Origin: Sphingomonas sp. CL5.1
GTDB lineage: Bacteria; Pseudomonadota; Alphaproteobacteria; Sphingomonadales; Sphingomonadaceae
Assembly (NCBI RefSeq): GCF_013344685.1
Contig: NZ_CP050137.1
Coordinates: forward strand, 4,023,001-4,087,000
Reading direction: 5' to 3'
DNA length: 64,000 nucleotides
Under the pieces are notes generated by a model, which saw only the letters and a list, made by a program, of their open reading frames with translations, was not told where the DNA came from and made no database searches. Positions within the stretch are counted from its first letter, which is position 1. Every line of letters begins with the position of its first letter. This document shows, one piece after another, positions 1-14,311 of this stretch. The position numbers were made by a program, and so were the translations under genes.

Positions 1-1266
1 ACCGCATTGCTTGAAACCGAGGCGGCGATCGCCCGGATCGAGGCACGCGACGGGCCGCTCAACGCGGTGGTGGTGCGCGATTTCGCCCGCGCCCGCCACG
101 CGGCGGCCGAACTCGACCAGCGCATCAAGGAAGGGTTCGACGCGCCCTTGCTCGGCGTGCCGATGACGGTGAAGGAAAGCTACGACCTCGCCGGCCTCAA
201 GACCACCTGGGGCTTCACCGAGCATCGCGACTTCACGGCGAAGCGCGACGCGGTGCTGGTGCAGCGGCTGAAGAACGCCGGCGCGATCGTGCTGGGCAAG
301 ACCAACGTGCCGGTCGGGCTGGCGGACGTTCAGTCGAACAACCCGATCTACGGCCGCACGCACAACCCGCACGACCATGGCCGCTCGGCCGGCGGCTCCT
401 CGGGCGGCAGCGGCGTTGCGCTGGCCTCGGGCATGGTGCCGCTGGAAATCGGCTCGGACATCGGCGGCTCGATCCGCACGCCAGCGGCCTTCAACGGCGT
501 GTGGGGGCTGAAGCCGACGTTCGGCCTGCTCTCCACCACCGGCCACAGTTTCCCCGGCACGGACGGCGCGCGGGTCGCGCTCAGCGTATGCGGGCCGATG
601 GCACGCAACGCCGACGACCTCGCGGCGGCGCTCGACATATTGGCGGATCATCCGGTCGTTCCCGCCCCCCCGCGCCGGCCGGACGAGTGGCGCATCCTGA
701 TCCTCGCCGATCATCCCGAGACGGGCATCTCAGCGGAGATGCGCGCGGCGCTGGAGAAGGTCGGCGCGGCCTTCGCCGGTGCCGGCGCGAAGGTGGACTA
801 TGAGAGCGACCTGCTGCCGGACCTGTCGCAGCAGCATCGCCATTACATGCACATGCTCAACATCGCGATGACGCGCGGCGCGCCCGATCCGGTGCGCGGC
901 GTGCCGACGCTCACCGAATGGTTCGACCTCGCCGACCATCAGGCGCGCAACATCCGCCAGTGGCATGAGGTGTTCGGCCGCTATGACGCGGTGATCGCGC
1001 CGATCTTCGGCACCACCGCCTTCCCGCATGACGATGCGCCGCTGACCGGGCGCCGGCTGGAGATCGACGGGCAGGACACGTCCTTCGCCACCCAGTTCGC
1101 CTGGGCCGGGCTGGCCACCTTCGCCAACCTTCCCGCGACCAGCGTGCCGGTGGCGACCGGGGCGGGCGGGCTGCCGATCGGCGTGCAGGTGATCGCCGAC
1201 CGTTATCAGGACCATCTTTCGATCGCGGCCGCGCGCGCGGCGCACGACCTTGTCTGGAGCAAATGA
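1..1266 (+). CDS. Amidase signature family hydrolase, 5' end cut by the window
   Basis: Amidase of the Ser-cisSer-Lys signature family, which hydrolyses a carboxamide to the acid and ammonia; the substrate cannot be told from sequence. The frame is open from base 1 (ACC GCA TTG), and the visible part starts with the typical segment ending in ARIEARDGPLNAVV, so roughly the first 20-30 residues lie upstream. The TTG at position 7 is unlikely to be the start. Visible motifs are the catalytic lysine in GVPMTVKESYD, the glycine/serine-rich signature SAGGSSGGSG and the following GSDIGGSIRTPA with the nucleophilic serine. The stop overlaps the start of the following acyl-CoA dehydrogenase (ATGA), so the two are probably translated together. 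This suggests the amidase feeds a carboxylic acid into acyl-CoA degradation, which is inference. Confidence 0.88.
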   Translation, partial: TALLETEAAIARIEARDGPLNAVVVRDFARARHAAAELDQRIKEGFDAPLLGVPMTVKESYDLAGLKTTWGFTEHRDFTAKRDAVLVQRLKNAGAIVLGKTNVPVGLADVQSNNPIYGRTHNPHDHGRSAGGSSGGSGVALASGMVPLEIGSDIGGSIRTPAAFNGVWGLKPTFGLLSTTGHSFPGTDGARVALSVCGPMARNADDLAAALDILADHPVVPAPPRRPDEWRILILADHPETGISAEMRAALEKVGAAFAGAGAKVDYESDLLPDLSQQHRHYMHMLNIAMTRGAPDPVRGVPTLTEWFDLADHQARNIRQWHEVFGRYDAVIAPIFGTTAFPHDDAPLTGRRLEIDGQDTSFATQFAWAGLATFANLPATSVPVATGAGGLPIGVQVIADRYQDHLSIAAARAAHDLVWSK

Positions 1267-2450
1267 TGAGCGACCTCGAACAATTCCGCGCCGAGACGCG
1301 CGCCTGGCTCGAAGCCAATTGCCCGCCGGAGATGCGCGAGCCGGTCCGCACCGAGAAGGATTCGGTCTGGGGCGGCCGCGACCAGAGCGCGATGACGCCC
1401 GCGCAGAAGCAGTGGATGGACCGGATGGGCGAGCGCGGCTGGACCGTGCCGGACTGGCCGAAGGAATATGGCGGCGGCGGCCTTTCGGCGGCCGAGACCA
1501 AGGTGCTGCGCGAGGAGATGGCCGCGCTGCGCTGCCGCAACCCGCTGTCGTCGTTCGGCATCTCGATGCTCGGGCCGGCGCTGCTGAAATATGGCAACGA
1601 GGCGCAGAAGAAGGAGCATCTGCCGAAGATCGCGCGCGGCGAAATCCGCTGGTGCCAGGGCTATTCGGAGCCGAACGCGGGGTCCGACCTCGCCAGCCTC
1701 GCCACCAAGGCGGAGGACAAGGGCGATCACTTCCTCGTCAACGGCCAGAAGGTCTGGACGAGCTACGCCGACAACGCCGACTGGATCTTCTGTCTCGTCC
1801 GCACCGATCCGACGAACAAGCATAACGGCATCAGCTTCGTGCTGTTCGACATGCGGACGCCCGGCGTCTCGACCAAGCCGATCCTGCTGATCTCCGGCTA
1901 TTCGCCGTTCTGCGAGACCTTCTTCGACAATGTGAAGGTGCCGAAGGAGAATCTGGTCGGCGAGCTGAACAAGGGCTGGGACGTCGCCAAATATCTGCTC
2001 GGGCACGAGCGCGAGATGATCTCCGGCATGGGCCTCGGCGGCGGCGGCAAGAACCCGCTGATCGAAGGCGCGAGGAAGACGATCGGGCTGGACGCGGAGG
2101 GCCGCCTCGCCGATCCGCTGCTCCGCGCGCAGATCGCGCTGTTCGAGGTGCGGGCGAAGGCGTTCGCGGCGCAGTCCGAGCGGTTCATCGATGAGCTGAA
2201 GGCGGGCAAGGCGCACCCCGCCCAGCCTTCGATGATGAAATATTACGGCACGGAGCTGAACAAGTCCCGCCACGAGCTGATGATGGCGGCGGGTGGCTCC
2301 GACGAGCTGGAATGGGAAAGCGAAGCCTCCGACGGCGGCCGCGAGGCGCGCGCGTGGCTACGCACCAAGGCGAACTCGATCGAGGGCGGCACGTCCGAGG
2401 TGCAGCTCAACATCATCGCCAAGCGCATCCTCAATCTGCCGGGAGCGTGA
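1263..2450 (+). CDS. Acyl-CoA dehydrogenase family protein, first subunit of pair 1
   Basis: FAD-dependent acyl-CoA dehydrogenase (395 residues), introducing the alpha-beta double bond into an acyl-CoA. It opens with the usual N-terminal helical domain (FRAETRAWLEANCP), followed by WPKEYGGGG, the substrate/FAD strand motif QGYSEPNAGSDLASL and the FAD-contact segment VNGQKVWTSYA. The C-terminus reads SIEGGTSEVQLNIIAKRIL. Here the glutamate sits one residue before the position of the MCAD catalytic base, which is glycine. That pattern fits heteromeric FadE28/FadE29-type enzymes, which use a base elsewhere. The start ATG overlaps the amidase stop, and an alternative start is the next codon, also ATG. 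The following gene, 62 bases on, is a second acyl-CoA dehydrogenase of complementary type, so an alpha2beta2 enzyme is likely. Substrate unknown. Confidence 0.92.
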   Translation: MMSDLEQFRAETRAWLEANCPPEMREPVRTEKDSVWGGRDQSAMTPAQKQWMDRMGERGWTVPDWPKEYGGGGLSAAETKVLREEMAALRCRNPLSSFGISMLGPALLKYGNEAQKKEHLPKIARGEIRWCQGYSEPNAGSDLASLATKAEDKGDHFLVNGQKVWTSYADNADWIFCLVRTDPTNKHNGISFVLFDMRTPGVSTKPILLISGYSPFCETFFDNVKVPKENLVGELNKGWDVAKYLLGHEREMISGMGLGGGGKNPLIEGARKTIGLDAEGRLADPLLRAQIALFEVRAKAFAAQSERFIDELKAGKAHPAQPSMMKYYGTELNKSRHELMMAAGGSDELEWESEASDGGREARAWLRTKANSIEGGTSEVQLNIIAKRILNLPGA

Positions 2451-2512: not shown

Positions 2513-3655
2513 ATGCCGCTTTTCCTGAATGATGAACAATCGATGCTGCGCGACACGGCGAAGGATTTCGTCGGAGAGAAAGCGCCCGTCAGCCATATGC
2601 GCAAGCTGCGCGACGACAAGGACGCCACCGGCTTCAGCCGCGACCTGTGGAAGCAGTTCGCGGAGATGGGCTTCACCGGCATCCTGGTCGGCGAGGATCA
2701 TGGCGGTCTTGGCCTCGGCCATGTCGAGGCGGGCGTGGTGCTAGAGGAGATCGGGCGCAACCTCTCCCCCTCCCCCTTCCTCTCCACCGCCGTCGCGGCG
2801 GTCGAGGCACTGAAGGGCACCGGCCATGCGGAACGCTGGTATCCCGGCATCCTGAAGGGCGAGACGGTCGCGGCGCTGGCGATCGACGAAGGGGCGAAGC
2901 ACCGCTCCAGCGTCGGCCTCAAGGCGGAGCGGGCCGGCAACGGCTTCCGCCTTTCCGGCAGGAAGCAGTTCGTCACCCACGGCCATGTCGCCGACCTGCT
3001 GATCGTCGCGGCGCGCACGGCGGGCGCGGCGGACGACGAGGCGGGCGTCACTTTGTTCGCAGTGCCGCAGGGCGCGGCGAAGATGTCCGTCACGCCGGAA
3101 CGGCTGGCCGATTCGAGCCTCGCCGCGCGGATCGAGTTCGACGGCGTCGAGGTGGATGCCGATGCGGTGATTGGCGAGGTCGACGCCGGGCGCGATCCGC
3201 TCGGCCGCCTGCTCCGGGCGGGCCGCACCGGCGCCGCGGCCGAGATGCTCGGCGTCGGCGCAGGCGCAATGGACATGACGGTCAACTACCTCAAGGAGCG
3301 CAAGCAGTTCGGCACGCTGATCGGCAGCTTCCAGGCGCTCCAGCACCGCGCCGCGCATCTCTACAGCGAGATGGAGGTGGCGCGCGCCGCCGTGCTCAAG
3401 GCGCAGCAGTTGCTCGACGCCGGCGACGACAGCACAGGTAGCGGGGGGGCGGACGCCGCCGTCTCGGTCGCCAAGGCGATGACCGGCATGGCGACCATGC
3501 TTTCGGTGCAGGAAGGCGTGCAGATGCACGGCGGCATCGGCATGACCGACGAGTACGACATCGGCTTCTACATGAAGCGCCAGCGCGTGCTGGCCGAGAT
3601 GTTCGGCGACGCCAATTTCCACGCCGACCGTCTGGCGCAACTGGCGGGGTACTGA
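2513..3655 (+). CDS. Acyl-CoA dehydrogenase family protein, second subunit of pair 1
   Basis: A 380-residue acyl-CoA dehydrogenase homologue, the probable partner of the gene just upstream. It begins PLFLNDEQSMLRDTAKDFV, has the central helical region RKQFGTLIGSFQALQHRAAH and ends VQMHGGIGMTDEYDIGFYMKRQ followed by a divergent tail. The usual YEGT segment with the catalytic glutamate near the C-terminus is absent; the tail reads AEMFGDANFHADRLAQL instead. Subunits of this type in known heterotetramers supply part of the FAD site rather than the catalytic base (family knowledge; not shown here). A clear ribosome binding site GGAG lies about six bases before the ATG. Same strand and order as the other pair at 13247-15626. 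Confidence 0.9.
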   Translation: MPLFLNDEQSMLRDTAKDFVGEKAPVSHMRKLRDDKDATGFSRDLWKQFAEMGFTGILVGEDHGGLGLGHVEAGVVLEEIGRNLSPSPFLSTAVAAVEALKGTGHAERWYPGILKGETVAALAIDEGAKHRSSVGLKAERAGNGFRLSGRKQFVTHGHVADLLIVAARTAGAADDEAGVTLFAVPQGAAKMSVTPERLADSSLAARIEFDGVEVDADAVIGEVDAGRDPLGRLLRAGRTGAAAEMLGVGAGAMDMTVNYLKERKQFGTLIGSFQALQHRAAHLYSEMEVARAAVLKAQQLLDAGDDSTGSGGADAAVSVAKAMTGMATMLSVQEGVQMHGGIGMTDEYDIGFYMKRQRVLAEMFGDANFHADRLAQLAGY

Positions 3656-3743
3656 AGAAAGCCGGCTCGTCCCCCGGCGAACGTCGGGGCGACGGACGGC
3701 AGCCGTCTTGTCGAGGGACCGCGCTTTCCTCTACGCCAGCCGC

Positions 3744-4646
3744 ATGGAGCCGACCGACGTGCCAGACACAACCACCCCGACCGAACTCGCCGCCGATCTG
3801 GTCGACCTGCTCGACGTGGAGGAGATCGACACCGATCTCTATCGCGGGCGGCGCTCGAACGGCGGGGTCGGGCGCGTGTTCGGCGGGCAGGTGATCGCAC
3901 AGGCGCTCCAGGCGGCGCAGCGCTCCACCGACGGGCCCAAGATCGCCCATTCGCTCCACGCCTATTTCATGCGGCCGGGCGACGAGAACTACCCGATCGT
4001 CTATCGCGTGGTCCGCGATTTCGAGGGGCGCAGCTTCGCCACCCGCCGTGTGATCGCGATGCAGCGCGGCGCGCCGATCCTCAACATGGCCGCTTCGTTC
4101 CAGACCCCGGAGGAAGGCTTCCACCATCAGGACCGGATGCCCGACGTCCCCCCGCCCGAGGAACTGGAGAGCGAGGCGCAAATCCGCGCGCGCGAAAGCG
4201 AACATGTCGACGAGCGTTTCCGCCGCGCGCTCGTCCGCCCGCGCCCGATTGAGATCCGCCCGGTATATCCGCGCAAATGGTTCAACCCCACGCCGACCGC
4301 GCCGATCCAGCATAGCTGGTTCCGCGTCGTCGCGCCGGTCGGCGACGATCCGGCGATCCACCGCGCGATCCTGTCCTATGCGTCGGACATGTCGCTGCTC
4401 GGCACCTGCATGCTGCCGCACGGCGTGAACTGGACCACGCCCGGCTTCCAGACCGCCAGCCTCGACCACGCCGTGTGGCTGCACGAGGATTTCCGCGCCG
4501 ACGACTGGCTGCTCTACGCCACCGACAGCCCGTGGGCGGGCCATGCGCGCGGCATGAATCGCGGGCAGATATTCACCCGCGACGGCCGGCTGGTCGCCAG
4601 CGTCGCGCAGGAAGGGCTGATCCGGCAGCGCGAGGTGCGCTCGTAA
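3744..4646 (+). CDS. tesB: Acyl-CoA thioesterase II
   Basis: TesB/ACOT8-type thioesterase, about 300 residues, releasing free acid and CoA from medium and long acyl-CoAs. It shows the double hot-dog fold signatures: N-terminal RGRRSNGG and VFGGQVIAQALQAAQ, HAYFMRPG, the aspartate strand ASLDHAVWLHEDF, and the C-terminal NRGQIFTRDGRLVASVAQEG that contains the conserved glutamine near the active site. The length matches TesB proteins (about 290). The ATG at 3744 has no obvious Shine-Dalgarno; a GTG at 3759 preceded by GGAG at a good distance is a credible alternative, and TTG at 3708 is less likely. The gene follows the acyl-CoA dehydrogenase pair on the same strand, so it may hydrolyse products or dead-end acyl-CoAs of that pathway. 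Confidence 0.9.
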   Translation: MEPTDVPDTTTPTELAADLVDLLDVEEIDTDLYRGRRSNGGVGRVFGGQVIAQALQAAQRSTDGPKIAHSLHAYFMRPGDENYPIVYRVVRDFEGRSFATRRVIAMQRGAPILNMAASFQTPEEGFHHQDRMPDVPPPEELESEAQIRARESEHVDERFRRALVRPRPIEIRPVYPRKWFNPTPTAPIQHSWFRVVAPVGDDPAIHRAILSYASDMSLLGTCMLPHGVNWTTPGFQTASLDHAVWLHEDFRADDWLLYATDSPWAGHARGMNRGQIFTRDGRLVASVAQEGLIRQREVRS

Positions 4647-4669
4647 GATTCACGCGAGGGAGTAACGCC

Positions 4670-6493
4670 ATGCAGATCGACCGCCGTGGGTTCGTCGCCG
4701 GAGCCGCCGCGCTCGGCGTCACCGCCACCCTGCCCTTCCGCGCGGTTGCCGCCACGTCGGGCGACGCCGCCGCGATGGCGCTGCTCGACCGGCAGGCGGA
4801 AGCGCTGCTGGCGAGCTACCCCGAGAACGCGGCCTTCCTCGGCATCGACACCGGCAAGCGCGCCGCGCTCAAATCCATGCTGAGCGATCACAGCATGGCG
4901 GCCGAGGCCCAACGCAAGGCGGACGCGGCCAGGCGCCTGTCCGAGCTGCGCGCGATCGACCTCACGCAGCTCTCCCCGAAGGTCACCACCCATGTCGAGA
5001 CCGCCACCGTCGCGCATGAGATCGCGCTCGACGGCTGGCGGCGGATGCCGGTGGGCGACATGGCGTTCCTTTCCGCCAACGGTTATCGTTCGACGCCCTA
5101 TGTCGTCAGCCAGGGCAATGGCGCGTTCGTCGACGTGCCGGACCTCCTGGAGAACAAGCACCAGATCGCCACCAGCGCCGACGCGGAAGCCTATCTCGCC
5201 CGGATGCGCGCCTATGCGAAGGAGCTGCGCGACGAGACCGAGCGGGTGAAGGCGGACGCGGCCAAGGGCGTCTATCTCCCCGGCTTCCTCAACGATATCA
5301 CCGCGCGCCAGCTTCGCGACGGGGCGGCGAAGCCGGCGGAATGGACGATCGTCACCGGCCTCGGCGCGAAGCTGCATGCCGCCGCCTTGCCCGACGAATG
5401 GAGCGCCCGCGCCGCCCGCATCGCGGAGCAGGAGATCGCCCCCGCGCTCGCCGCGCAGGCCGACGCCTTCGTCGCCCTCCGCCCGAAGGCGCCCGACGTC
5501 GCCGGCATGTGGCGGGTGCCGGACGCGGACAACATCTACGGCTGGCTGGTTGAGGCCGGCACCACCACAAAGCGCACGCCGGAGGAGATCCACGCCGCCG
5601 GCCTCGATCAATGCAAGGCGCTGGCAGCGCAGATGGACCCGCTGCTCCGCGCACAGGGGCTGACGCAAGGCACCGCCGGCGAGCAGCTCGCCCAGCTCGG
5701 CAAGCGCCCCGACCTGCTGTTCGCCAATACCGACGCTGGCCGCGCCGAGCTGCTCGCCTATCTCAACGGTGTCGTCGCGAAGATCAGGCCGCTGATGCCG
5801 AAGGCGTTCGGCAAGCTGGTGCGCGGCAACCTCAACATCAAGCGCGTGCCGCCCGCGATCCAGGACGGCGCGCCGAACGGCTATGCGGGGCCGGGATCGA
5901 TGGATGGCAAGATCCCCGGCACCTATTACATCAACCTGCGCGACACCGGCATCTGGCCGCGCTTCGCCCTGCCGACGCTGACCTTCCACGAGGGGATTCC
6001 GGGGCATATCTGGCAGGGCGAATATACCTTCGATCTGCCGCTGATCCGCACCTTGCTGAGCTTCAACGCCTATTCCGAAGGCTGGGGCCTCTATGCCGAG
6101 CAGATCGCGGACGAGGTGGGCTTCTACGCCGACGATCCGCTGGGCCGGATCGGCTATCTTCAGTCCATGAACTTCCGCGCCGCGCGGCTGGTTGCGGACA
6201 CCGGGCTGCACCACAAGCGCTGGACGATGGAACAGGCGATGGAATGGTTCATGGCCACCACCGGCTTCACCGCCAGCCAGGCGCGATCGGAACTGAACCG
6301 CTATTGCACCTGGCCGGGGCAGGCGCTCGGCTACAAGACCGGACACAATGAGATCAACCGCCTGCGCGACGCGGCGAAGGCGAGGATGGGCGCACGCTTC
6401 GACGTGCGCGACTTCAACGACACGGTGGTGCAGACCGGCGGCGTGCCGCTCGGCGTGCTGGCGAAGGTAGTCGATCGCTGGGCTGGGGCGTGA
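4670..6493 (+). CDS. DUF885 family zinc hydrolase with Tat signal
   Basis: Exported protein of 607 residues in the DUF885 family, related to HExxxGH metallopeptidases. The N-terminus has a twin-arginine signal (DRRGFVAGAAALGV, cleavage probably after FRAVA), so a folded, metal-loaded export is expected. The metal site is visible as HEGIPGH at residues 440-446, followed by YSEGWGLYAEQ about 25 residues on, which carries the conserved third ligand glutamate. The length is usual for the family. I chose the ATG at 4670 because the Tat signal starts there and GAGGG precedes it by about ten bases; the frame is open further upstream but runs inside tesB. Substrate unknown; most members are uncharacterised, some act as peptidases. 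It sits 23 bases after tesB, so it may be cotranscribed. Confidence 0.85.
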   Translation: MQIDRRGFVAGAAALGVTATLPFRAVAATSGDAAAMALLDRQAEALLASYPENAAFLGIDTGKRAALKSMLSDHSMAAEAQRKADAARRLSELRAIDLTQLSPKVTTHVETATVAHEIALDGWRRMPVGDMAFLSANGYRSTPYVVSQGNGAFVDVPDLLENKHQIATSADAEAYLARMRAYAKELRDETERVKADAAKGVYLPGFLNDITARQLRDGAAKPAEWTIVTGLGAKLHAAALPDEWSARAARIAEQEIAPALAAQADAFVALRPKAPDVAGMWRVPDADNIYGWLVEAGTTTKRTPEEIHAAGLDQCKALAAQMDPLLRAQGLTQGTAGEQLAQLGKRPDLLFANTDAGRAELLAYLNGVVAKIRPLMPKAFGKLVRGNLNIKRVPPAIQDGAPNGYAGPGSMDGKIPGTYYINLRDTGIWPRFALPTLTFHEGIPGHIWQGEYTFDLPLIRTLLSFNAYSEGWGLYAEQIADEVGFYADDPLGRIGYLQSMNFRAARLVADTGLHHKRWTMEQAMEWFMATTGFTASQARSELNRYCTWPGQALGYKTGHNEINRLRDAAKARMGARFDVRDFNDTVVQTGGVPLGVLAKVVDRWAGA

Positions 6494-6662
6494 GGCGGGC
6501 GCGTCGCCACACCGCGAAGTTCGATAGACGACCGCCCGACCTCTGCCTCAAGTCCGTCATGCCAGCGCAAGCTGCCTCTCCATCAAGGTGCGATACGCCT
6601 GCCACCGCGCTTGAGGCATGAGGCCCCATCTTTCGCTGGATGACGCAGCGGGAAGGGGGCGC

Positions 6663-7463
6663 CTAAACCGCCGTCCGCCCATATTCCTGCTTCGTCACCG
6701 GATGGCTCGACGACAGGCCGCCGTCCACCGCGATCGCCTGCCCGTTGACGTAACCCGCATCGTCCGACGCGAGGAACAGCGCCACCTTCGCCAGTTCCTC
6801 CGGCGCCGCCCCCCGCCGCAGCGGGTTCAGCCGCCCGAGCCGGTCCATCTTCCCGGCGTCGCGCGCATAATCGAAGGTGGGCTTGGTCATCCCCGTCTCG
6901 GTCAGGCCGGGGCAGATCGCGTTGACGCGCACGTTCGAGCCGGAAAGCTGCTGCGCGGAGACCTTGGCAAGGTTGATGACACCCGCTTTCGACGCCGAAT
7001 AGGCGGGCGATCCCGCGCCGGAGCGGATACCGGCGACGCTGGCGGTAAGGATGATCGCGCCCTTGCCGCGTTCGGCGATGCGGGGAGCGGCGTGCTTCAC
7101 GGCGAGGAACGGACCGATCAGGTTGACGCGGAGCACCTCCGTGATGAGGTCCACGCTGGTGTCGAAGATGTTCGCCATGCCGCCGGAGATGCCGGCGTTG
7201 GCGAACATCACGTCCAGCCCGCCGTAACGGTCGCAGGCGAGCGCGACCGCTTTCTCCACATCGGCCTCCGACCCCGCATCCATGCGGATCGCCTCCGCCA
7301 CGCCGCCGGCGTCGCGGATCGCCTTCGCGGTTTCCTCCGCTCCGTCGGTCACGTCAGCGACGATCACCTTGCCGCCTTCCGCCGCGAACAGCGTCGCCGC
7401 CGCGCGGCCGATGCCGGAGCCGGCGCCGGTGACGATGATCGACTTGTCGGTGAACCTTGCCAT
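6663..7463 (-). CDS. SDR family oxidoreductase (last gene of the minus-strand operon)
   Basis: Classical short-chain dehydrogenase/reductase, 266 residues. It has the nucleotide-binding TGAGSGIG near residue 11, NAG near residue 90, and the catalytic serine plus YSASK motif near residue 155, then PG after the active site and the usual C-terminal [11 protein letters not shown]. The residue after the second strand is Asp (VIVADVTD), which favours NAD(H) over NADP(H). The open frame extends upstream to 7640, but the extension is low-complexity sequence overlapping the next gene; the ATG at 7463 gives the standard N-terminus. It lies 14 bases downstream of another SDR, at the end of the operon 11779-6663. 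Likely oxidises or reduces a hydroxy/keto group in the same acyl-CoA pathway; substrate not predictable. Confidence 0.9.
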
Positions 7464-7477
7464 TTCCGCTCTCCTGT

Positions 7478-8242
7478 TCAGATCGTCACGCCGCCGTCGA
7501 TCACCATCACCTGCCCGGTCATGAAGCCGCTCGCCTTCGACGCGAGATAGACGACCGCGCCGGCGATCTCCTCCGGCTCGCCGATGCGGCGCAGCGGGGT
7601 GGTGCGGTTGCGCTCGGCCACCGCCGCCTCGTCCTCCCACAAGGCTTTGGCGAAATCGGTCTTGATCAGGCCCGGCGCGATGCAGTTCACGCGGATGCCA
7701 TAGCGGCCATATTCATAGGCCAGATTGCGGGCGAGCTGCATGTCGGCCGCCTTGGAGATGCAATAGGCGCCGATCGTCGCCGATCCGCGCAGTCCGCCGA
7801 TCGAGGAGACGATGACGATCGATCCCTCGCCGCGCTCCTTCATCTCCGGCGCGACCATCGTGATCAGCCAGTGGTTCGAGATGATGTTGTTGTCGAGAAT
7901 CTTGCGGAACTGCTCGTCCGCGATCCCCTCCTGCGGGCCGTAATAGGGATTGGAGGCGGCGTTGCAGACGAGGCAGTCGATCCGGCCGAATGCGCGGCGC
8001 GTCTCGTCCACCAGATGCTGCAAGCCGGCCTTGTCGGAGATGTTGGCGGCGACGGCGATCGCCGTGCCCGCGCCGAAACGGTCGTTGATCTCCTTCGCCG
8101 CCGCATCGCAGGCGTCCTGCTTGCGGCTGGAGATGACCACCTTCGCCCCCTGCTCCGCGCAGGCGATCGCGGCGGACTTGCCGATCCCGCGCGACGATCC
8201 GGTGATGAGCACGACCTTGCCGGTCAGATCGAACAGCGACAT
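7478..8242 (-). CDS. SDR family oxidoreductase
   Basis: A second classical SDR of 254 residues, with TGSSRGIG near residue 14, the NAG position replaced by NAA ([12 protein letters not shown]), the active-site YCISK near residue 157, PG in [14 protein letters not shown] and a C-terminal [11 protein letters not shown]. The segment after strand two reads VISSRKQD, where the arginine suggests NADP(H) preference. The NAASNP variant is common in SDRs grouped with ACAD10/11-type dehydrogenases and the human DHRS4-like branch, which I recall only as a family trend. It lies 16 bases after the APH-type kinase gene and 14 bases before the next SDR, tight spacing for one transcript. In the levulinate pathway an SDR makes the 4-hydroxyacyl-CoA from the 4-keto form, a plausible role here. 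Confidence 0.9.
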
Positions 8243-8258
8243 ACGGAGCTTCCCCTTT

Positions 8259-9317
8259 TTACGCCCCCGCCTTCACGGCGAATTCCCATGCCGCCTCGGC
8301 CAGCGCCGGCACGCGGGCGCTGGCGGCCTCGGCATTGGCGTTGGAGGCGGTGCCGATCAGGAAACGCTTCCTGATCCCCTGCACGATCGCGGCGAGGCGG
8401 AACATGTTGAACGACAGATACCAGTTGAGATCGGGCAGCCCCTCCGGCCGGCTGGTCTTTTCGCAATAGCGCGCGACGACCTCCTCGACGGTCGGGATGC
8501 CGGTCTCCGGCCCCGTCAGCCCCATCACGCCGGAACGCCCCTCAGGCTGCGTCACCCAGGAGATCAGGAAATAGGAGAAGTCCGCCAGCGGATCGCCGAG
8601 CGTCGACAACTCCCAATCGAGCACGGCCGCGACGCGCGGCTCCAGCCCCGGCGCGAATTTCATATTGTCGCAACGATAGTCGCCGTGGACGATCGAGGTG
8701 CGCGTCTGCGGCGGCAGGGTGCGCGGCAGCCATTCGATCAGCCGCTCCATCGGCTCCATATGCTCGGTCTCGGCGCCGCGATATTGCTTGGTCCAGCGCG
8801 ACACCTGCCGCTCGAAATAATTGCCGGGGCGGCCGAATGTCTCCAGCCCCGCCGCGACATGATCGACGTTGTGAAGCTGCGCGAGCGTGTCGATCATCGC
8901 GTTGTAATGCGCGCGGCGCGTGTCGGCATCCATGCCGGGGAAGGCGCCGTCCCAGATCGTGCGTCCCTCAACCATCTCCATCACGTAGAAGGCGGAACCG
9001 ATCACCGCATCGTCCTCGCACAGCCCGAACGGGCGCGGCACGGGAAAGCCGGTGGGGTGCAGCCCGGCGATCACGCGATATTCGCGATCGACCGCATGAG
9101 CGGACGGCAGCAGTTCCCCCAGCGGCTTGCGGCGCAGCACGTAATCGCGCGCCGGGGTGCTGAGCTTGTAGGTCGGATTGGACTGGCCACCGGCGAATTT
9201 CGCATAGGTCAGCGGCCCGGCGAAATCCGGCACCCTGTCCTTCATCCATGCCGAGAGGCGATCGGTATCGAGCCGGTCGCGCTCGGCGATGTCGGTCTGG
9301 AGGCTGGTGTCGGTCAT
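8259..9317 (-). CDS. APH-fold phosphotransferase of the ACAD10/11-associated type
   Basis: Kinase of the aminoglycoside phosphotransferase fold, 352 residues, belonging to the group fused to or encoded beside ACAD10/11-like dehydrogenases, not an antibiotic-resistance enzyme. Visible motifs: GGQSNPTYKL glycine loop, the strand lysine pair in YVLRRKPLG, the glutamate in DREYRVI, the catalytic loop VHGDYRCDNMKF and the metal-binding VLDWELSTLGDPLADFSYF. In the levulinate pathway (LvaA) and in human ACAD10/11 this domain phosphorylates the 4-hydroxyl of a hydroxyacyl-CoA (established for those proteins). Its start overlaps the stop of the zinc alcohol dehydrogenase (ATGA). The ACAD11-type partner is two genes upstream. 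No small LvaB-like partner gene is present next to it, which is a difference from the Pseudomonas system. Confidence 0.88.
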   Translation of the reverse strand: MTDTSLQTDIAERDRLDTDRLSAWMKDRVPDFAGPLTYAKFAGGQSNPTYKLSTPARDYVLRRKPLGELLPSAHAVDREYRVIAGLHPTGFPVPRPFGLCEDDAVIGSAFYVMEMVEGRTIWDGAFPGMDADTRRAHYNAMIDTLAQLHNVDHVAAGLETFGRPGNYFERQVSRWTKQYRGAETEHMEPMERLIEWLPRTLPPQTRTSIVHGDYRCDNMKFAPGLEPRVAAVLDWELSTLGDPLADFSYFLISWVTQPEGRSGVMGLTGPETGIPTVEEVVARYCEKTSRPEGLPDLNWYLSFNMFRLAAIVQGIRKRFLIGTASNANAEAASARVPALAEAAWEFAVKAGA

Positions 9318-10402
9318 TGATCGAACACGATCACGCTGCGCGTCGTGTCGCCCTTGCGAAGCTCGTCGAACGCATGGTTGATGCTGGCGAGCGGCATCCG
9401 GTCCGCGATGATCGTGTCGAGGTCGAGCAGTCCGCGCTGATAGAAATCGACCAGCCGGGGGATATCGACCGGGAAGCGATTGTAGCCCATGATCCCGCCC
9501 TGGAGCCTTTTGCCGGACAGCAGGTCCATCGCGGAGAGGCCGACCTTCTCGCTGAGCGGCATCATCCCGAGGATCGTCGCCGTGCCGCCGCGACGCAGCA
9601 CCTTCACCGCGGTATCCGCCGATTGTGGGCGGCCGACCGCCTCGATCGCGTGATCGACGCCGCCCTTGGTGGCCTCCACCACTTCCGCGACAATATTTTC
9701 CGCGAGCGGGTCATAGCTATGGGTCGCGCCGAGCTTTTCGGCGATGGCACGCTTCTCCGGCACCGGATCGAGCGCGATGATCTTGCCCGCGCCCGCGATC
9801 TTCGCCGCGTTCACCGCCGCAAGCCCGATCCCGCCGCAGCCGACGACGCACACCGTCTCGCCCGGCGACACATCCGTGGTGTTGAACACCGCGCCCGCGC
9901 CTGTCGTCACCGCGCAGCCGATCAGCGCGGCGCGATCCAGCGGCATTTCCGGGTCGATCGCGACGCAGGCATGTTCGTGGACCAGCATCATCTCGGCATA
10001 GGCCGACAGGTTGAGCATCTGGTTGACCGGGCTGCCGTCCGGGAACCTCAGGCGCGGCTCCGCACCGGCCTGTCGCCGCGTCTCGCCGCCGAGGCAGAGA
10101 TACATGCGGCCCGTCACGCAAAATTCGCAATGGCCGCAGAAGGCGGAAAGACAGGTGACGACATGGTCGCCCGGCTTCACCGTGCGCACCTCCGAGCCGA
10201 CCGCCTCGACGATCCCCGCCGCCTCATGGCCGGGAATCGCCGGCAAGGGATGCGGATAGGCCCCGTCGATGAAATGCAGGTCGGAACGGCACACACCGCA
10301 GGCCAGCGTGCGGATCAGCACCTCATGCGCCGCCGGCTTGGACACGTCGACGTCCATCACCTCCAGCGGCTTCTTCGCTTCGAATAAAACGGCGGCCTTC
10401 AT
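9314..10402 (-). CDS. Zinc-dependent alcohol dehydrogenase, MDR family
   Basis: Medium-chain zinc alcohol dehydrogenase (362 residues), oxidising an alcohol with NAD. The catalytic zinc ligands are in LACGVCRSDLHF and IPGHEAAG plus the later IGCAVTTGAGAVF cysteine. The structural zinc lobe has the four cysteines in LSAFCGHCEFCVTGRMYLC. The cofactor fold shows VCVVGCGGIGLAAVN, followed by an aspartate (ALDP), typical of NAD. The layout resembles class III-like enzymes. I placed the start at MKAAVLFEAKKP (10402); the frame runs upstream to 10450 but that part has no family similarity. It is second in the operon, 69 bases after the ACAD gene and overlapping the kinase gene by four bases. It may oxidise a primary alcohol or aldehyde precursor of the acid; inference. 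Confidence 0.9.
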   Translation of the reverse strand: MKAAVLFEAKKPLEVMDVDVSKPAAHEVLIRTLACGVCRSDLHFIDGAYPHPLPAIPGHEAAGIVEAVGSEVRTVKPGDHVVTCLSAFCGHCEFCVTGRMYLCLGGETRRQAGAEPRLRFPDGSPVNQMLNLSAYAEMMLVHEHACVAIDPEMPLDRAALIGCAVTTGAGAVFNTTDVSPGETVCVVGCGGIGLAAVNAAKIAGAGKIIALDPVPEKRAIAEKLGATHSYDPLAENIVAEVVEATKGGVDHAIEAVGRPQSADTAVKVLRRGGTATILGMMPLSEKVGLSAMDLLSGKRLQGGIMGYNRFPVDIPRLVDFYQRGLLDLDTIIADRMPLASINHAFDELRKGDTTRSVIVFDQ

Positions 10403-10471
10403 GCGCCTCTCCAGTCGATCAGGTCGTCCCGGTCGCGGCCGGGGCGCCAAGGGTCAGTCAACAAGCGGCTT

Positions 10472-11779
10472 TCAGCGCGAGACGCCGATGTCCCCGCTCG
10501 AAATCTCCACGCCGCCGCGCGGCGCGGGGCGCTCGGCCTTCCAGTCGGCGTATTTGCCGAACTCGTCGCGTGCGATCGCGCGGCAATGGACCTCGTCCGG
10601 GCCGTCCGCGAAACGCAAGGTGCGCATCGCCGCCCAGGCATGGGCGAGGCCGAAATCCTCCGCCACCCCGCCGCCGCCATGCGCCTGGATCGCGTCGTCG
10701 AGAATCTGAAGCGCCATGTTCGGCGCTTGCACCTTGATCATCGCGATCTCGAGCTTGGCTGACTTGTTGCCGGCCTTGTCCATCATGTCCGCAGCCTTGA
10801 GGCACAACAGGCGCGTCATCTCGATATCGATGCGCGCGCGGGCGATGCGCTGCTCCCACACGCTATGGTCGGAGATGCGCTTGCCGAACGCGACGCGGCT
10901 GACGAGGCGCTGCGCCATCTTCTCGATCGCGACCTCCGCCACGCCGATGGTGCGCATGCAATGGTGGATGCGGCCCGGCCCGAGCCGCCCCTGCGCGATC
11001 TCGAAGCCCCGGCCCTCGCCGAGCAGCAGATTCTCCACCGGCACGCGCACGTCGGTGAAGCTCACCTCGCCATGGCCGTGCGGGGCATGGTCATAACCAT
11101 AGACGGAGAGCATCCGCTCGATCTTCACGCCCGGCGTGTCCATCGGCACGAGGATTTGGCTCTGCTGCTGGTGGCGCGAGCCCTCGAAGCTCGTCTTGCC
11201 CATCAGGATGCCGATCTTGCAACGCGGATCGCCCACGCCCGACGACCACCATTTGCGGCCGTTGATGACGTAATGATCGCCGTCACGCTCGATCCGCGTC
11301 TCGATATTGGTCGCATCGGAGGAGGCGACCTGCGGCTCGGTCATCAGGAAGACGGAGCGGATATCGCCGTTCATCAGCGGGCGCAGCCACTGCTCCTTCT
11401 GCTCGCGCGTGCCGTAGCGGTGCAGCACCTCCATGTTACCGGTGTCGGGCGCGGAGCAGTTGAAGCATTCGCTCGCCCAGCCGACCTTGCCCATCTCCTC
11501 GGCGCAGAGCGCATATTCGAGATTGGTGAGCTGGGTCCCCTCGAACTCGAACGTGTCGTCAACATGCGCCTGCCCGGAGTGCGGCGGCATGAAGAAATTC
11601 CACAGCCCGGCCTCTTTCGCCCTGGCCTTCACCTCCTCGATCACCGGGATCACCTTCCACGGATCGCCCTCGTGGTGCTGGCGCTCATATTCCGCCTGGC
11701 GGGGGCGGATGTGCTGATCGATAAAATCGCGTACCCGGTCGCGGAAATAGGTTTCGCGTTCGCTCAGCGTGAAGTCCAT
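10472..11779 (-). CDS. ACAD10/11-type acyl-CoA dehydrogenase, first gene of the operon
   Basis: Acyl-CoA dehydrogenase family enzyme of 435 residues, the branch that in animals forms the C-terminal half of ACAD10 and ACAD11 and in Pseudomonas is LvaC. Features: FFMPP near the N-terminus, [16 protein letters not shown] at the substrate/FAD strand, [16 protein letters not shown], and the diagnostic end [11 protein letters not shown] followed by [17 protein letters not shown]. Where MCAD has its catalytic glutamate this protein has Asp392, as in ACAD10/11. In the studied systems the enzyme acts with the kinase to eliminate phosphate from a 4-phosphoacyl-CoA and so move the oxygen to C3. Start ATG at 11779, 154 bases from the divergent regulator. 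It should lead the transcript running down to 6663. Confidence 0.9.
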
Positions 11780-11879
11780 CGCATCCCTCCAAAGCCTGTT
11801 CAGCCAGCGGCTCTAGACCGTACCCATCTTTCGGTAAAGCGCCCGAATCATCATTTATCCCCTACGAAAACGCCCTGCC

Positions 11880-11918
11880 GCAACAAGCGCGAAAGGGACT
11901 GTTTCTTCGAATTGTTGC
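11880..11918. promoter_or_regulatory. Candidate operator dyad in the divergent intergenic region
   Basis: In the 154-base gap between the ACAD gene and the tandem TetR gene, GCAACAA (11880-11886) is repeated inverted as TTGTTGC (11912-11918), with a nested GAAA/TTTC pair inside. It ends 15 bases before the regulator's ATG. Position and symmetry fit an operator for the adjacent TetR-type protein, controlling itself and possibly the minus-strand operon. I saw no convincing -35/-10 pair. This is a by-eye pattern; chance cannot be excluded. Confidence 0.3.
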
Positions 11919-11933
11919 TGCTAAGGTGGCCGG

Positions 11934-13178
11934 ATGCACGGCACGGGGGATACCGGCCGGGGGGAGGAGACGAGCACGCGGCGCTTCCGGGCGAAACGTG
12001 ATGCGATCCTCGCCGCGGCCGCTGAGGCGATCAACGAACAGAGCGCGAAGGGCATGACCTTCGCCGATGTCGCGCGGCGCGTCGGGCTGAACACCACCAG
12101 CGTCACTTATTATTTCAAGCGCAAGGAGGACCTTGCCGCCGCCGCGTTCGAGCATACGCTGGATTCGCTGCTGTCGATGCTCGACGAGGCGATGGAGGAG
12201 GTGACGCCGGAGGCGCGGGTCGAGCGTTATCTCGCGCTCAACATGGCGCGGCTGATGCGCGTCCAGCGCGGCGAGGAACGGCAGATGGCCGGGCTTTCCG
12301 ACCTTCGCGCAATGGACGAGCCGGTGCGCTCGCGGTTGATGGCGCGGTGGCGCGAGGTGTTCCGCCGCACCCGCCTGCTGTGGGGCGCGGCGGACGCGCG
12401 GCAGCAGACCGACCTCAACGGCGCGCGCGCGCACGTGCTGCTGGAGAACACCTTCTGGCTACCGGTGTGGCTGGGCCGCTACGAGCCGGATCAATATCCC
12501 CGTGCCGAGGCGCGGCTGATGGAGGTGTTCCGCCACGGCATCGCACGGCCGGAAGCCGAATGGCGGCCAGCGCCGATCGACCTGCCGCATGACGAGGCGG
12601 TGCCGGGGCGCGAGGCGTTCCTGCTGGCGGCGACGCGGCTCATCAACGAGCTTGGCTATCGCGGTGCCTCGGTGCAGCGCATCGCATCGGAGCTGAACGT
12701 CACCAAGGGCAGCTTCTACCACCATCTCGACGCCAAGGACGATCTGGTCGTCGCCTGCTACAAGCGCAGCTTCGATACGATCGCGGCGGCGCAGCGGCTC
12801 GCCGACGAGCGCGGCGGAAGCCATTGGGACCGGCTGGCGGGCACGATCGCGACCTTGCTCGACGTGCAATTCTCGGAGCTTGGGCCGCTGCTGCGCACCA
12901 CCGCGCTCACCGCGCTACCGCCCGGCGTGCGCAATGTGATGGTGGAACGATCGAACCGCATCGCGCGCCGCTTCGCCGGCACGATCTCCGACGGGATCGC
13001 GGAAGGGACGATCCGCGCGGTCGACGCGCTGATCGCGGCGCAGGCGCTGATGGCCTTCCTCAACGCCGCATTCGACATGCGCAAATGGGCGTGGTCGATG
13101 CCGCGCGAGCGGGCGATCGCGCTCTACGCCTCCACCCTCACCTTCGGCCTGTTCGACGACCGGGTTATCGCGGAATAG
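11934..13178 (+). CDS. Tandem double-TetR transcriptional regulator
   Basis: A 414-residue DNA-binding protein made of two consecutive TetR/AcrR units in a single chain; ordinary TetR regulators are about 190-220 residues and act as dimers. The first helix-turn-helix lies at about residues 20-70 (MTFADVARRVGLNTTSVTYYFK), followed by an all-helical ligand-type domain. A second complete TetR unit begins near residue 218, with its helix-turn-helix in ASVQRIASELNVTKGSFYHHL. The two units are clearly different in sequence, so this is an old fusion or duplication, not a sequencing artefact. It is divergent from the ACAD/ADH/kinase/SDR operon and convergent with the acyl-CoA dehydrogenase at 13247, so it probably senses an acyl-CoA intermediate of this region. 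The inverted repeat just upstream is a candidate binding site. Confidence 0.9.
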   Translation: MHGTGDTGRGEETSTRRFRAKRDAILAAAAEAINEQSAKGMTFADVARRVGLNTTSVTYYFKRKEDLAAAAFEHTLDSLLSMLDEAMEEVTPEARVERYLALNMARLMRVQRGEERQMAGLSDLRAMDEPVRSRLMARWREVFRRTRLLWGAADARQQTDLNGARAHVLLENTFWLPVWLGRYEPDQYPRAEARLMEVFRHGIARPEAEWRPAPIDLPHDEAVPGREAFLLAATRLINELGYRGASVQRIASELNVTKGSFYHHLDAKDDLVVACYKRSFDTIAAAQRLADERGGSHWDRLAGTIATLLDVQFSELGPLLRTTALTALPPGVRNVMVERSNRIARRFAGTISDGIAEGTIRAVDALIAAQALMAFLNAAFDMRKWAWSMPRERAIALYASTLTFGLFDDRVIAE

Positions 13179-13246: not shown

Positions 13247-14311
13247 TCAATAACCGTTGAGCCGCCCGAAACGGTCGCGGTGATAGGAGGCATTGCCCCA
13301 CATCGCCTCCAGCACCGCCGCGCGCTTGAGGAAGAGGCCCGCGTCGAACTCGTCGGTCATGCCGACGCCGCCGTGGAGCTGCACCATTTCGCGGCTGACG
13401 AGACGCAGCGTGTCGTTGGCCACCGCCTTCGCGAGGCTCACCGCCTGATCGACATCCGAGCGCCCCGCGTCGATCGCCTCCAGCGCGCCCTCCACCGCCG
13501 AGCGCATCAGCTCCAGCTCGGTCAGCATCTTGGCCATGCGGTGCTGGAGCGCCTGGAAGGTCGAGAGCACCTGTCCGAACTGCACGCGCTGCTTGAGATA
13601 GTCGAGCGTCTGGCCGAACGCGCTTTCCGCCATGCCGAGCATCTCGGCGGCGGTGACGGCGGCGGCGCGATCGGCCACCGCCTGCGTCAACGCCTTGTCG
13701 CCGAGCTTCTCGGCCGGGGCATCGCTGAACGTCACCTCCGCGTGGCTGCGGCTGTCCGCCATGCGCCGCGACGCCACCGTCACGCCCTCGCCTTTTGGCA
13801 CCAGATAGAGGCCATCGGCCGCCGCGACGACGAACACGTCCGCGCCGTCGCCCTCCGCGACGAATTTCTTGGTGCCGCTCAGCTTCCCGCCGGAGACGGT
13901 CGCCGCGATCTTCATGTCGTGGCCCGGCCCCTCGTCGATCGCCAGCGTCGCGGTCGCCTCGCCGCTGGCGAGCCTCGGCAGCCATTCACTCCTGGCCTTG
14001 TCAGACGATCCCATCGCGATCGCGCTCGCCGCCACGGCGGTCGAGGCGAGCGGGGTCGCAGCAAGGTTGCGGCCGAGCTGCTCCAGCACCAGCCCGAGCG
14101 AGAGATAGCCGAACGCCGAACCGCCGAACTCCTCGGGGATGACGATCCCGGCCCAGCCCATGCCGCCGATCGCGCTCCACGCCTCGGGATCATATCCCTT
14201 GCCGCCACCCGCGTCGCGCAGCTTGCGGAAGGCGGCGATCGGGCTTTCGTTGTCGGCCCATTCGCGCGCCATGTCGCGCAGCATCACCTGTTCTTCGTTC
14301 AATGCAGCCAT
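13247..14311 (-). CDS. Acyl-CoA dehydrogenase family protein, second subunit of pair 2
   Basis: Acyl-CoA dehydrogenase homologue of 354 residues, the same subtype as the protein at 2513-3655. It begins MAALNEEQVMLRDMAREWA, carries the central RVQFGQVLSTFQALQHRMAK and ends VQLHGGVGMTDEFDAGLFLK with the tail LEAMWGNASYHRDRFGRLNGY. Like its counterpart it lacks the C-terminal YEGT-type segment, so it probably supplies FAD contacts to its partner rather than the catalytic base. The start at 14311 is preceded by AGGGAAA at the right distance; the open frame continues to 14368 without family similarity. It follows its partner gene by 94 bases on the same strand. Substrate unknown. Confidence 0.9.
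   Translation of the reverse strand: MAALNEEQVMLRDMAREWADNESPIAAFRKLRDAGGGKGYDPEAWSAIGGMGWAGIVIPEEFGGSAFGYLSLGLVLEQLGRNLAATPLASTAVAASAIAMGSSDKARSEWLPRLASGEATATLAIDEGPGHDMKIAATVSGGKLSGTKKFVAEGDGADVFVVAAADGLYLVPKGEGVTVASRRMADSRSHAEVTFSDAPAEKLGDKALTQAVADRAAAVTAAEMLGMAESAFGQTLDYLKQRVQFGQVLSTFQALQHRMAKMLTELELMRSAVEGALEAIDAGRSDVDQAVSLAKAVANDTLRLVSREMVQLHGGVGMTDEFDAGLFLKRAAVLEAMWGNASYHRDRFGRLNGY

What the first reader, a model, noticed from the sequence alone, without database searches (positions are those of the whole stretch)
6663..11779. Split ACAD10/11-type module: kinase plus dehydrogenase for 4-hydroxyacyl-CoA, with no LvaB
One operon encodes an ACAD10/11-type dehydrogenase (ADGPDEVH end, Asp392 at the usual Glu position), an APH-fold kinase (HGDYRCDN, DWELSTLGDP), a zinc alcohol dehydrogenase and two SDRs. 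In animal ACAD10/11 the first two are fused and phosphorylate then isomerise 4-hydroxyacyl-CoA; in Pseudomonas lvaABCDE they are separate and serve levulinate. Here the small LvaB partner is missing and an alcohol dehydrogenase is added, so the substrate may be different, for instance a hydroxylated fatty or terpenoid acid.
Basis: partly seen in the sequence, partly recalled or inferred. Interest (0 to 1): 0.7.

Follow-up and report, generated by a model that had tools for sequence, protein, structure and literature searches.

The report
Sphingomonad 4-hydroxy fatty acid operon
A five-gene Sphingomonas operon, whose core recurs across much of its bacterial family, carries as separate proteins the kinase and the unusual dehydrogenase that animals fuse into one enzyme to feed 4-hydroxy fatty acids into ordinary fat breakdown, together with three redox enzymes whose exact substrate is still unknown.

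Summary
Window 6663-11779 (minus strand, Sphingomonas) is a tight operon: ACAD10/11-type dehydrogenase, Zn alcohol dehydrogenase, APH-fold kinase, two SDRs; a tandem-TetR gene is divergent. The dehydrogenase has the five ACAD11 residues (R626, R631, H634, R637, D753); the kinase has the D220, N225 and R176 equivalents and falls in a fully supported clade with mouse ACAD11. The pair very likely phosphorylates 4-hydroxyacyl-CoA and eliminates phosphate to 2-enoyl-CoA, a known chemistry (lva operon, ACAD10/11). The missing LvaB is not diagnostic: published split pairs exist without it. Kinase and dehydrogenase of this type co-occur in 208 of 298 Sphingomonadaceae genomes. Added here: ACAD-ADH-kinase is a recurrent unit (52 of 62 and 30 of 39 usable loci); an alpha2beta2-like acyl-CoA dehydrogenase gene co-occurs with it; a TACCG-N6-CGGTA site accompanies the TetR (58 of 59 loci with it, 0 of 40 without); 5 of 45 ACAD-like matches in this genome carry the signature, four with a kinase beside them or one gene away. 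The substrate, and what ADH and the SDRs do, are inferred, not shown. New variant of a known kind.

The parts
10472..11779 (-). ACAD10/11-type acyl-CoA dehydrogenase (proposed 4-phosphoacyl-CoA eliminase/isomerase); R265, R270, H273, R276, D392
   Evidence: 456 bits to mouse ACAD11 8v3u, 429 to 4hr3; signature in 99 of 99 loci with a match of at least 60% identity and in 5 of 45 own ACAD-like matches
9314..10402 (-). Zn-dependent MDR alcohol dehydrogenase, catalytic Cys38/His59/Cys163, Asp212 at the NAD position (inferred NAD-dependent)
   Evidence: Pfam ADH_N and ADH_zinc_N; liver-type and class III ADHs as nearest solved chains; these four residues and one structural Cys in 89 of 89 loci
8259..9317 (-). 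APH-fold kinase (proposed 4-hydroxyacyl-CoA 4-kinase), D213, N218, R170, R78
   Evidence: APH 185 bits; 3dxp 373 bits, mouse ACAD11 248 bits; residues in 111 of 111 loci; tree
7478..8242 (-). SDR1, Ser147/Tyr160/Lys164, Arg40 (inferred NADP(H)-preferring); proposed 4-oxoacyl-CoA reductase (LvaD-like role)
   Evidence: 38-41% to the SDRs beside 9o56-like kinases in other genomes
6663..7463 (-). SDR2, Ser142/Tyr155/Lys159, Asp37 (inferred NAD-preferring); proposed hydroxyacyl-CoA dehydrogenase
11818..11838 (-). operator-like palindrome TTTACCGAA-N5-GGTACG (core TACCG-N6-CGGTA, one mismatch here), its core ending 41 bases before the ACAD start
   Evidence: 58 of 59 loci with the tandem TetR, 0 of 40 without; one match in the window (0.16 expected) and one in the whole genome, where a reversed control pattern gave two
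11934..13178 (+). divergent tandem-TetR regulator (two TetR_N stretches, 414 aa), presumed local repressor
   Evidence: Pfam TetR_N in two stretches; in 53 of 62 usable named loci, 4 of 39 usable other family loci
1263..2450 (+). pimC-like acyl-CoA dehydrogenase subunit (alpha2beta2-like pair by inference), linked partner
   Evidence: TIGR03204 303 bits, below its cut-off; 4x28_A and Tcur3483 as nearest solved; co-occurs with the kinase in 195 of 298 genomes
2513..3655 (+). pimD-like partner subunit
   Evidence: TIGR03203 223 bits, below its cut-off; isovaleryl-CoA dehydrogenases nearest solved, Tcur3481 third
3708..4646 (+). TesB-type acyl-CoA thioesterase, linked in part of Sphingomonas
   Evidence: PRK10526 299 bits, below its cut-off; Pfam; synteny

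Best explanation
The operon feeds 4-hydroxyacyl-CoA (and probably 4-oxoacyl-CoA) into beta-oxidation. (1) The kinase phosphorylates the 4-hydroxyl of a 4-hydroxyacyl-CoA with ATP. (2) The ACAD10/11-type flavoenzyme, with Asp392 as base and R265/H273/R276 holding the phosphate, eliminates phosphate without net oxidation and gives a 2-enoyl-CoA, which normal beta-oxidation takes on. (3) SDR1 (NADPH type) reduces 4-oxoacyl-CoA to the 4-hydroxy form, as LvaD does for levulinyl-CoA. (4) The NAD-type Zn-ADH and SDR2 oxidise alcohols of the same substrate: possibly the enantiomer the kinase disfavours, so that ADH plus SDR1 invert C4, or C3 after hydration. (5) The tandem TetR represses the operon through the TACCG-N6-CGGTA site until an acyl-CoA or related ligand binds. 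Steps 1-2 are inferred from close homology and invariant catalytic and substrate residues; 3-5 are inferences from cofactor residues, gene order and a site that co-occurs with the regulator. Nothing was shown biochemically here.
For: Dehydrogenase closer to ACAD11 and 4hr3 than to any other solved ACAD by some 285 bits or more; all five ACAD11 residues present; substitutions of R626, H634 and R637 disrupted, and of the catalytic Asp eliminated, ACAD activity per PMC12440821 (section 7 and passages). Kinase D220/N225/R176 equivalents present, clade with mouse ACAD11 at 100/100. Invariance: ACAD 99/99, kinase 111/111, ADH 89/89, SDR1 61/61 and SDR2 72/72 readable loci. Same-strand ACAD within 2.5 kb of the kinase in 55 of 62 and 34 of 39 usable loci. 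ACAD found without kinase in 2 of 298 genomes, ADH without kinase in 0 of 298. A Novosphingobium capsulatum plasmid adds an acyl-CoA ligase and a 3-hydroxyacyl-CoA dehydrogenase (L219).
Against: No assay, expression or mutant data. Kinase found without an ACAD at the threshold used in 31 of 298 genomes and without ADH in 90; the kinase threshold also admits a paralog type (own genome: two matches). SDR1 and SDR2 lie near the kinase in only 13 and 15 of 39 usable family loci outside the named set, so they are not part of the core. The pimC-like gene is within 9 kb in only 21 of 62 named loci (32 of 39 in the other set), and no second operator lies near it in the window. No acyl-CoA ligase or transporter in the operon itself. 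Kinase identity to ACAD11 is 39%, and the mouse row in the tree has an unusual letter make-up. The paper's R86 could not be mapped; the Arg beside the alpha-C Glu is conserved. The reported R preference concerns ACAD10 and is only about fourfold (PMC11342911).
Confidence: 0.75

Rival explanations
1. It is a levulinate (lva-type) operon: SDR1 is LvaD, kinase LvaA, dehydrogenase LvaC, and the substrate is levulinate or 4-hydroxyvalerate.
For: Same three activities by homology; SDR1 is 38-41% identical to SDRs that sit beside 9o56-like kinases in other genomes. P. citronellolis shows that lvaB can be absent.
Against: No LvaR-type sigma54 regulator (TetR instead), no ligase or symporter in the operon, ADH added, alpha2beta2-like ACAD pair linked. 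The kinase groups with ACAD11 and 3dxp, away from the 9o56 type, but where LvaA itself falls was not tested. Presence in most of the family genomes searched suits a general substrate better than levulinate (inference).
Confidence: 0.15
2. The substrate is a bulky or branched (terpenoid- or steroid-like) 4-hydroxy acid; ADH, SDRs, the alpha2beta2-like ACAD pair and the module form one dedicated pathway.
For: pimC-like gene within 9 kb of the kinase in 32 of 39 hand-picked family loci and co-occurring with it (195 both, 3 pimC only, 44 kinase only, of 298). Nearest solved chains of the pimC-like protein are 4x28_A (recalled as M. tuberculosis ChsE4-ChsE5) and Tcur3483. Relatives sit with P450, epoxide hydrolase or TonB receptor genes on Sphingobium and Novosphingobium plasmids.
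Against: The similarity is modest (177 bits); the pimD-like subunit is nearest to isovaleryl-CoA dehydrogenases (138 bits), Tcur3481 third (122), 4x28_D 91. pimC linkage only 21 of 62 in the named loci. No ring-cleaving or hydroxylating gene in the operon. Presence in genomes of 2.2-3 Mb argues for a common substrate.
Confidence: 0.25
3. The operon primarily oxidises an alcohol: ADH and SDRs are the main pathway and the kinase/ACAD pair only disposes of a 4-hydroxy by-product.
For: Three dehydrogenases in one operon; ADH adjacent to the kinase in 52 of 62 and 31 of 39 loci.
Against: ADH is not found without the kinase (0 of 298 at E 1e-105) while the kinase is found without ADH in 90 of 298, so ADH looks like the accessory part.
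Confidence: 0.1
4. The kinase is an aminoglycoside- or other small-molecule kinase unrelated to the dehydrogenase.
For: APH fold; generic annotation of this family as aminoglycoside phosphotransferase (e.g. 9o56).
Against: Two antibiotic-kinase models and the thiamine kinase model score only 21-25 bits against cut-offs of 205-390; ACAD11 clade and acyl-CoA residues; strong coupling with the ACAD.
Confidence: 0.02

Closest known systems
Mammalian ACAD10 / ACAD11 (PMC12440821, PMC11342911)
   Same: Kinase and dehydrogenase domains both homologous over their length (ACAD11); catalytic Asp in both; R626/R631/H634/R637/D753 signature conserved
   Different: Two separate proteins with an ADH gene between them; adds ADH, two SDRs and a TetR regulator; no HAD domain as in ACAD10. 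ACAD10 itself was not compared by sequence
Pseudomonas putida lvaABCDE(FG) levulinate operon (as described in PMC6692424, passages; the primary paper PMC5705400 is not held)
   Same: Separate kinase, ACAD10/11-type dehydrogenase and SDR in one operon
Pseudomonas citronellolis LA18 lva cluster (PMC6692424, passages)
   Same: Kinase, ACAD, SDR and no lvaB found
   Different: Has a histidine phosphatase, a ligase and a symporter nearby; no ADH in the passages seen
Solved proteins 3dxp (kinase, 373 bits) and 4hr3 (ACAD, 429 bits)
   Same: Stand-alone counterparts of the two enzymes
   Different: The molecule names in the listing give no tested function; 3dxp is named putative acyl-CoA dehydrogenase

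Membership tests
ACAD10/11-type (4-phosphoacyl-CoA) dehydrogenase | Residues R626, R631, H634, R637 and catalytic Asp753 of ACAD11 (R631 shared with other ACADs) | tested here: met
   RRHRD at 265/270/273/276/392; 99 of 99 loci; 5 of 45 own ACAD-like matches
ACAD10/11-type (4-phosphoacyl-CoA) dehydrogenase | Closer to ACAD10/11 than to other ACADs | tested here: met
   456/454/449 bits to ACAD11 chains, 429 to 4hr3, next 144
[quoted passage not shown]
   needs protein and LC-MS
ACAD10/11/LvaA-type 4-hydroxyacyl-CoA kinase | Catalytic Asp220, Asn225 and CoA-contact Arg176 equivalents | tested here: met
   D213, N218, R170; 111 of 111 loci
ACAD10/11/LvaA-type 4-hydroxyacyl-CoA kinase | CoA-contact Arg86 of ACAD11 | tested here: inconclusive
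   the chain numbering that fits all other residues puts no Arg at 86; the Arg next to the alpha-C Glu (R78 here) is conserved
ACAD10/11/LvaA-type 4-hydroxyacyl-CoA kinase | Groups with ACAD10/11 in a kinase tree | tested here: met
   100/100 clade of 38 of 66 rows with mouse ACAD11 and 3dxp; ACAD10 not included
ACAD10/11/LvaA-type 4-hydroxyacyl-CoA kinase | Position relative to P. putida LvaA | not tested
   no LvaA sequence in hand
lva operon (levulinate) | LvaB partner gene next to the kinase | tested here: not met
   gaps of 69, -4, 16 and 14 bases. PF19802, recalled as a possible LvaB family, matches once in the genome, elsewhere; that LvaB belongs to it was not established
lva operon (levulinate) | Acyl-CoA ligase (LvaE) and uptake genes (LvaF/G) in the operon | tested here: not met
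   none among the five genes; the nearest ligase identified in the window is at 19728-21260
lva operon (levulinate) | Sigma54-type regulator LvaR | tested here: not met
   tandem TetR instead
lva operon (levulinate) | LvaD-type SDR reducing the 4-oxo group | tested here: inconclusive
   SDR1 has the NADP-type Arg40 and 38-41% identity to SDRs beside 9o56-like kinases; no LvaD sequence in hand
fused animal ACAD10/11 | Kinase and ACAD in one polypeptide | tested here: not met
   separate ORFs with the ADH between them

The most novel reading that the evidence does not exclude
The operon is a stereo-inverting version of the 4-hydroxyacyl-CoA pathway: the NAD-type Zn-ADH oxidises the 4-hydroxy enantiomer the kinase disfavours to the 4-oxo form, the NADPH-type SDR1 re-reduces it to the favoured one, and kinase plus ACAD10/11-type enzyme remove the hydroxyl, so both enantiomers and 4-oxo acids converge. 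In the same genome three further kinase/dehydrogenase pairs serve other 4-hydroxy substrates, making phosphorylation-elimination a multi-substrate device in sphingomonads.
Probability: 0.25. Interest if true: 0.6.

Novelty: new variant of a known kind. Interest (0 to 1): 0.42.

Why it matters
The chemistry that animals use for 4-hydroxy fatty acids appears, as split enzymes, in 208 of 298 genomes searched of one bacterial family, often with the same redox partner and, in Sphingomonas, with its own regulator and operator. Stand-alone enzymes of this kind could help work on structure, stereochemistry and chain length. The five-residue signature separated these dehydrogenases cleanly from the other ACAD-like proteins of one genome (5 of 45), so the generic labels 'acyl-CoA dehydrogenase' and 'aminoglycoside phosphotransferase' could be corrected in many genomes.

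Tried and rejected
Aminoglycoside kinase: rejected on model scores and coupling. LvaB = DUF6285 (PF19802): recalled, not confirmed. The genome's single PF19802 match lies beside a kinase of a distant clade and a Glu-type ACAD. Of the 15 genomes of unnamed family f44 that have a 9o56-like kinase, 14 have no PF19802 match and the one in G668 is on another contig, so I make no claim from it. A motif scan for kinases and ACADs beside PF19802 genes flagged one ORF in 30 loci because my pattern was too narrow; reading the ORFs of six loci showed kinase-like ORFs in several. The lva primary paper is not held. 9o56 as a stand-in for LvaA: dropped, the f44 kinases listed are only 43-47% identical to it. 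Regulon beyond the operon: no second operator match in window or genome. A second conserved block near the TetR start was not followed up. Literature: eight searches, judged from titles and the starts of abstracts in lists that were cut for the broad ones (15 of 67, 10 of 21, 10 of 320 shown), listed no paper on this operon in Sphingomonas; most subscription papers are not held. My first residue table was off by one in ACAD11 numbering; corrected. One SDR row (own module 2) was cut imprecisely, with a stop written as X, and is not used. No structure prediction was run.


Full report
What is there. The finding's five genes are real and lie where stated, on the minus strand: an acyl-CoA dehydrogenase (11779-10472), a zinc alcohol dehydrogenase (10402-9314), an APH-fold kinase (9317-8259), SDR1 (8242-7478) and SDR2 (7463-6663). 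Gaps of 69, -4, 16 and 14 bases make one transcription unit likely. Divergent to it is a 414-aa regulator with two TetR_N stretches (11934-13178). The window lies at 4,023,001-4,087,000 of contig 1 of a 4.57-Mb genome; the nearest named relative returned is Sphingomonas sp. 67-36 (98% over the kinase; records of the same genome may be left out).

Identity of the dehydrogenase. Against the PDB it scores 456, 454 and 449 bits with ACAD11 chains and 429 with 4hr3, then drops to 144. In mouse ACAD11, R626, H634 and R637 are modelled to hold the 4-phosphate, R631 is conserved across ACADs and D753 is the base (PMC12440821, section 7 read). The window has R265, R270, H273, R276 and D392 in those columns (chain index plus one fits these and the kinase D220, N225 and R176). 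Of the 45 ACAD-like matches in the genome, 5 carry all five residues and 40 do not; some of the 40 are distant and align poorly.

Identity of the kinase. It scores 373 bits with 3dxp, 248 with mouse ACAD11, 214 with 9o56 and 40 with 3ats; two antibiotic-kinase models and the thiamine kinase model score 21-25 bits against cut-offs of 205-390. D213, N218 and R170 stand at ACAD11 D220, N225 and R176. In a tree of 66 kinases that I selected (IQ-TREE) it sits in a 38-row clade at 100/100 support with mouse ACAD11 and 3dxp; the mouse row is flagged for unusual letter make-up. 9o56 and the kinases of the f44 loci fall outside (several of the 11 loci read show, by eye, phosphatase, SCP2-like protein, kinase, SDR), and kinases beside DUF6285 genes are far away. 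LvaA and ACAD10 were not in the tree.

LvaB. The published record already contains split pairs without it: no lvaB homolog was found in the P. citronellolis lva region (PMC6692424, passages), and bacterial orthologs of kinase and dehydrogenase replaced the ACAD10 domains in vitro (PMC11342911, passages), a text in which 'LvaB' does not occur. Absence of LvaB therefore does not argue for a new substrate.

Conservation. I searched 298 Sphingomonadaceae genomes, the window's own included. Matches: kinase 239 (E 1e-60; loose enough to admit a paralog type, the own genome has two), ACAD 210 (1e-160), ADH 149 (1e-105), the pimC-like ACAD at window 1263-2450 198 (1e-135). Overlaps: kinase and ACAD 208, ACAD alone 2, kinase alone 31, neither 57; kinase and ADH 149, ADH alone 0, kinase alone 90, neither 59; kinase and pimC 195, pimC alone 3 (genomes listed at 67%, 66% and 88% completeness), kinase alone 44, neither 56. 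Fisher p values are below 1e-20 but ignore shared ancestry.

Gene order. Of 80 named loci, which were found through the window's own kinase and are mostly Sphingomonas, 71 had a kinase of at least 50% identity and 62 of these had 5.5 kb on both sides: ACAD on the same strand nearby in 55, ADH adjacent in 52, SDR1 in 45, SDR2 in 53, TetR in 53, pimC-like gene within 9 kb in 21, all five operon genes in 42. Of 40 loci that I picked by hand from the family genomes with a match, 39 were usable: ACAD 34, ADH 31, SDR1 13, SDR2 15, TetR 4, pimC-like gene 32, all five 5. So ACAD-ADH-kinase is the recurrent unit (52 of 62, 30 of 39); the SDRs and TetR are typical of Sphingomonas. Residues checked are invariant wherever readable: ACAD 99/99, kinase 111/111, ADH 89/89, SDR1 61/61 (of 62) and SDR2 72/72 (of 73). 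A plasmid search with the ACAD matched 123 records, of which I opened 8.

Redox partners. ADH keeps its three catalytic zinc ligands, the one structural Cys tested and an Asp at the NAD position; SDR1 has Arg40 (NADP type), SDR2 Asp37 (NAD type); both SDRs have Ser-Tyr-Lys. SDR1 is 38-41% identical to the SDRs beside 9o56-like kinases elsewhere and 37% to one in a Deinococcus cluster, against 30-32% to SDR2 and other SDRs; this fits, but does not prove, an LvaD-like 4-oxo reductase. A Novosphingobium capsulatum plasmid carries TetR, ACAD, kinase, SDR, SDR, 3-hydroxyacyl-CoA dehydrogenase, long-chain acyl-CoA ligase and two acyl-CoA dehydrogenases in a row (L219), a nearly complete route from acid to beta-oxidation.

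Regulation. Alignment of 59 intergenic stretches (window included) showed two conserved blocks: one near the TetR start (TT-GAAGa-aCAGT-C-TTT), not followed up, and GCTTTACCGAA-N4-cGGTAtGg near the ACAD. Upstream of ACAD the second is present in 58 of 59 loci that have the tandem TetR (56 under the strict pattern) and in 0 of 40 that lack it, at 36-50 bases from the start codon; the loci share ancestry. The window's copy (11818-11838) has one mismatch. It is the only match in the window at up to three mismatches (0.16 expected; 15 of 100 shuffles had one or more) and in the genome at up to two, where the reversed control pattern gave two. A local repressor is the natural reading.

More modules in the genome. 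Signature dehydrogenases also lie at 738350 (with SDR and kinase, no ADH match), 2546303 and 2026464 (each next to a kinase) and 1375111 (no APH match nearby). The kinases at 740606 and 2545306 form a clade of their own (100/98; the latter on a long branch), the one at 2025625 is in the ACAD11 clade.

Mechanism and limits. Best reading: kinase and ACAD10/11-type enzyme take 4-hydroxyacyl-CoA to 2-enoyl-CoA; SDR1 brings in 4-oxo substrates; ADH and SDR2 oxidise. The ACAD10 kinase prefers R about fourfold and still acts on S (PMC11342911, passages), so stereo-inversion by ADH plus SDR1 is an attractive but untested role. The linked ACAD pair (large subunit nearest to 4x28_A, recalled as part of the M. 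tuberculosis cholesterol side-chain enzyme, and to Tcur3483; small subunit nearest to isovaleryl-CoA dehydrogenases, Tcur3481 third) leaves a bulky acid possible. Nothing biochemical was measured here.

Noticed in passing
L214 (Sphingomonas sp. MM-1 plasmid pISP1) 7001-8239; hits H7-H9 have the same score, contexts not opened: An ACAD10/11-type dehydrogenase, 71% identical to the window's, sits beside linX with IS6100 copies on both sides on a lindane-degradation plasmid; no kinase match in the 15 kb shown. Its role there is unknown.
   Followed up: partly
L217 (Sphingobium sp. TomTYG65 plasmid) 3920-11730: 3-hydroxyacyl-CoA dehydrogenase, ACAD10/11-type ACAD, kinase, epoxide hydrolase and cytochrome P450 genes close together on one strand: perhaps a dedicated pathway for an oxidised substrate.
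   Followed up: no
G001, G041, G042, G068, G078, G146: PF19802 (DUF6285) matches lie in open frames of 455-487 aa in these six Sphingomonadaceae genomes, suggesting a fusion with another domain, perhaps a kinase.
   Followed up: no
window 13247-15629: A second pimC/pimD-like ACAD pair (minus strand) on the other side of the TetR gene, found near the operon in part of the Sphingomonas loci.
   Followed up: partly
window 63197-63969 and L204 8131-8903: The same two-ORF unit (transposase-like by eye) occurs at the window end and elsewhere in the genome; the printed protein starts are identical.
   Followed up: no
L176 4637-6127 and L184 4245-5717: In two family genomes an MFS_2 transporter gene directly precedes the ACAD gene, a candidate substrate importer.
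   Followed up: partly
window 11856-11933 (intergenic, TetR side): A conserved block TT-GAAGa-aCAGT-C-TTT near the TetR start in the 59 aligned intergenic stretches, possibly the regulator's promoter or a second site.
   Followed up: no
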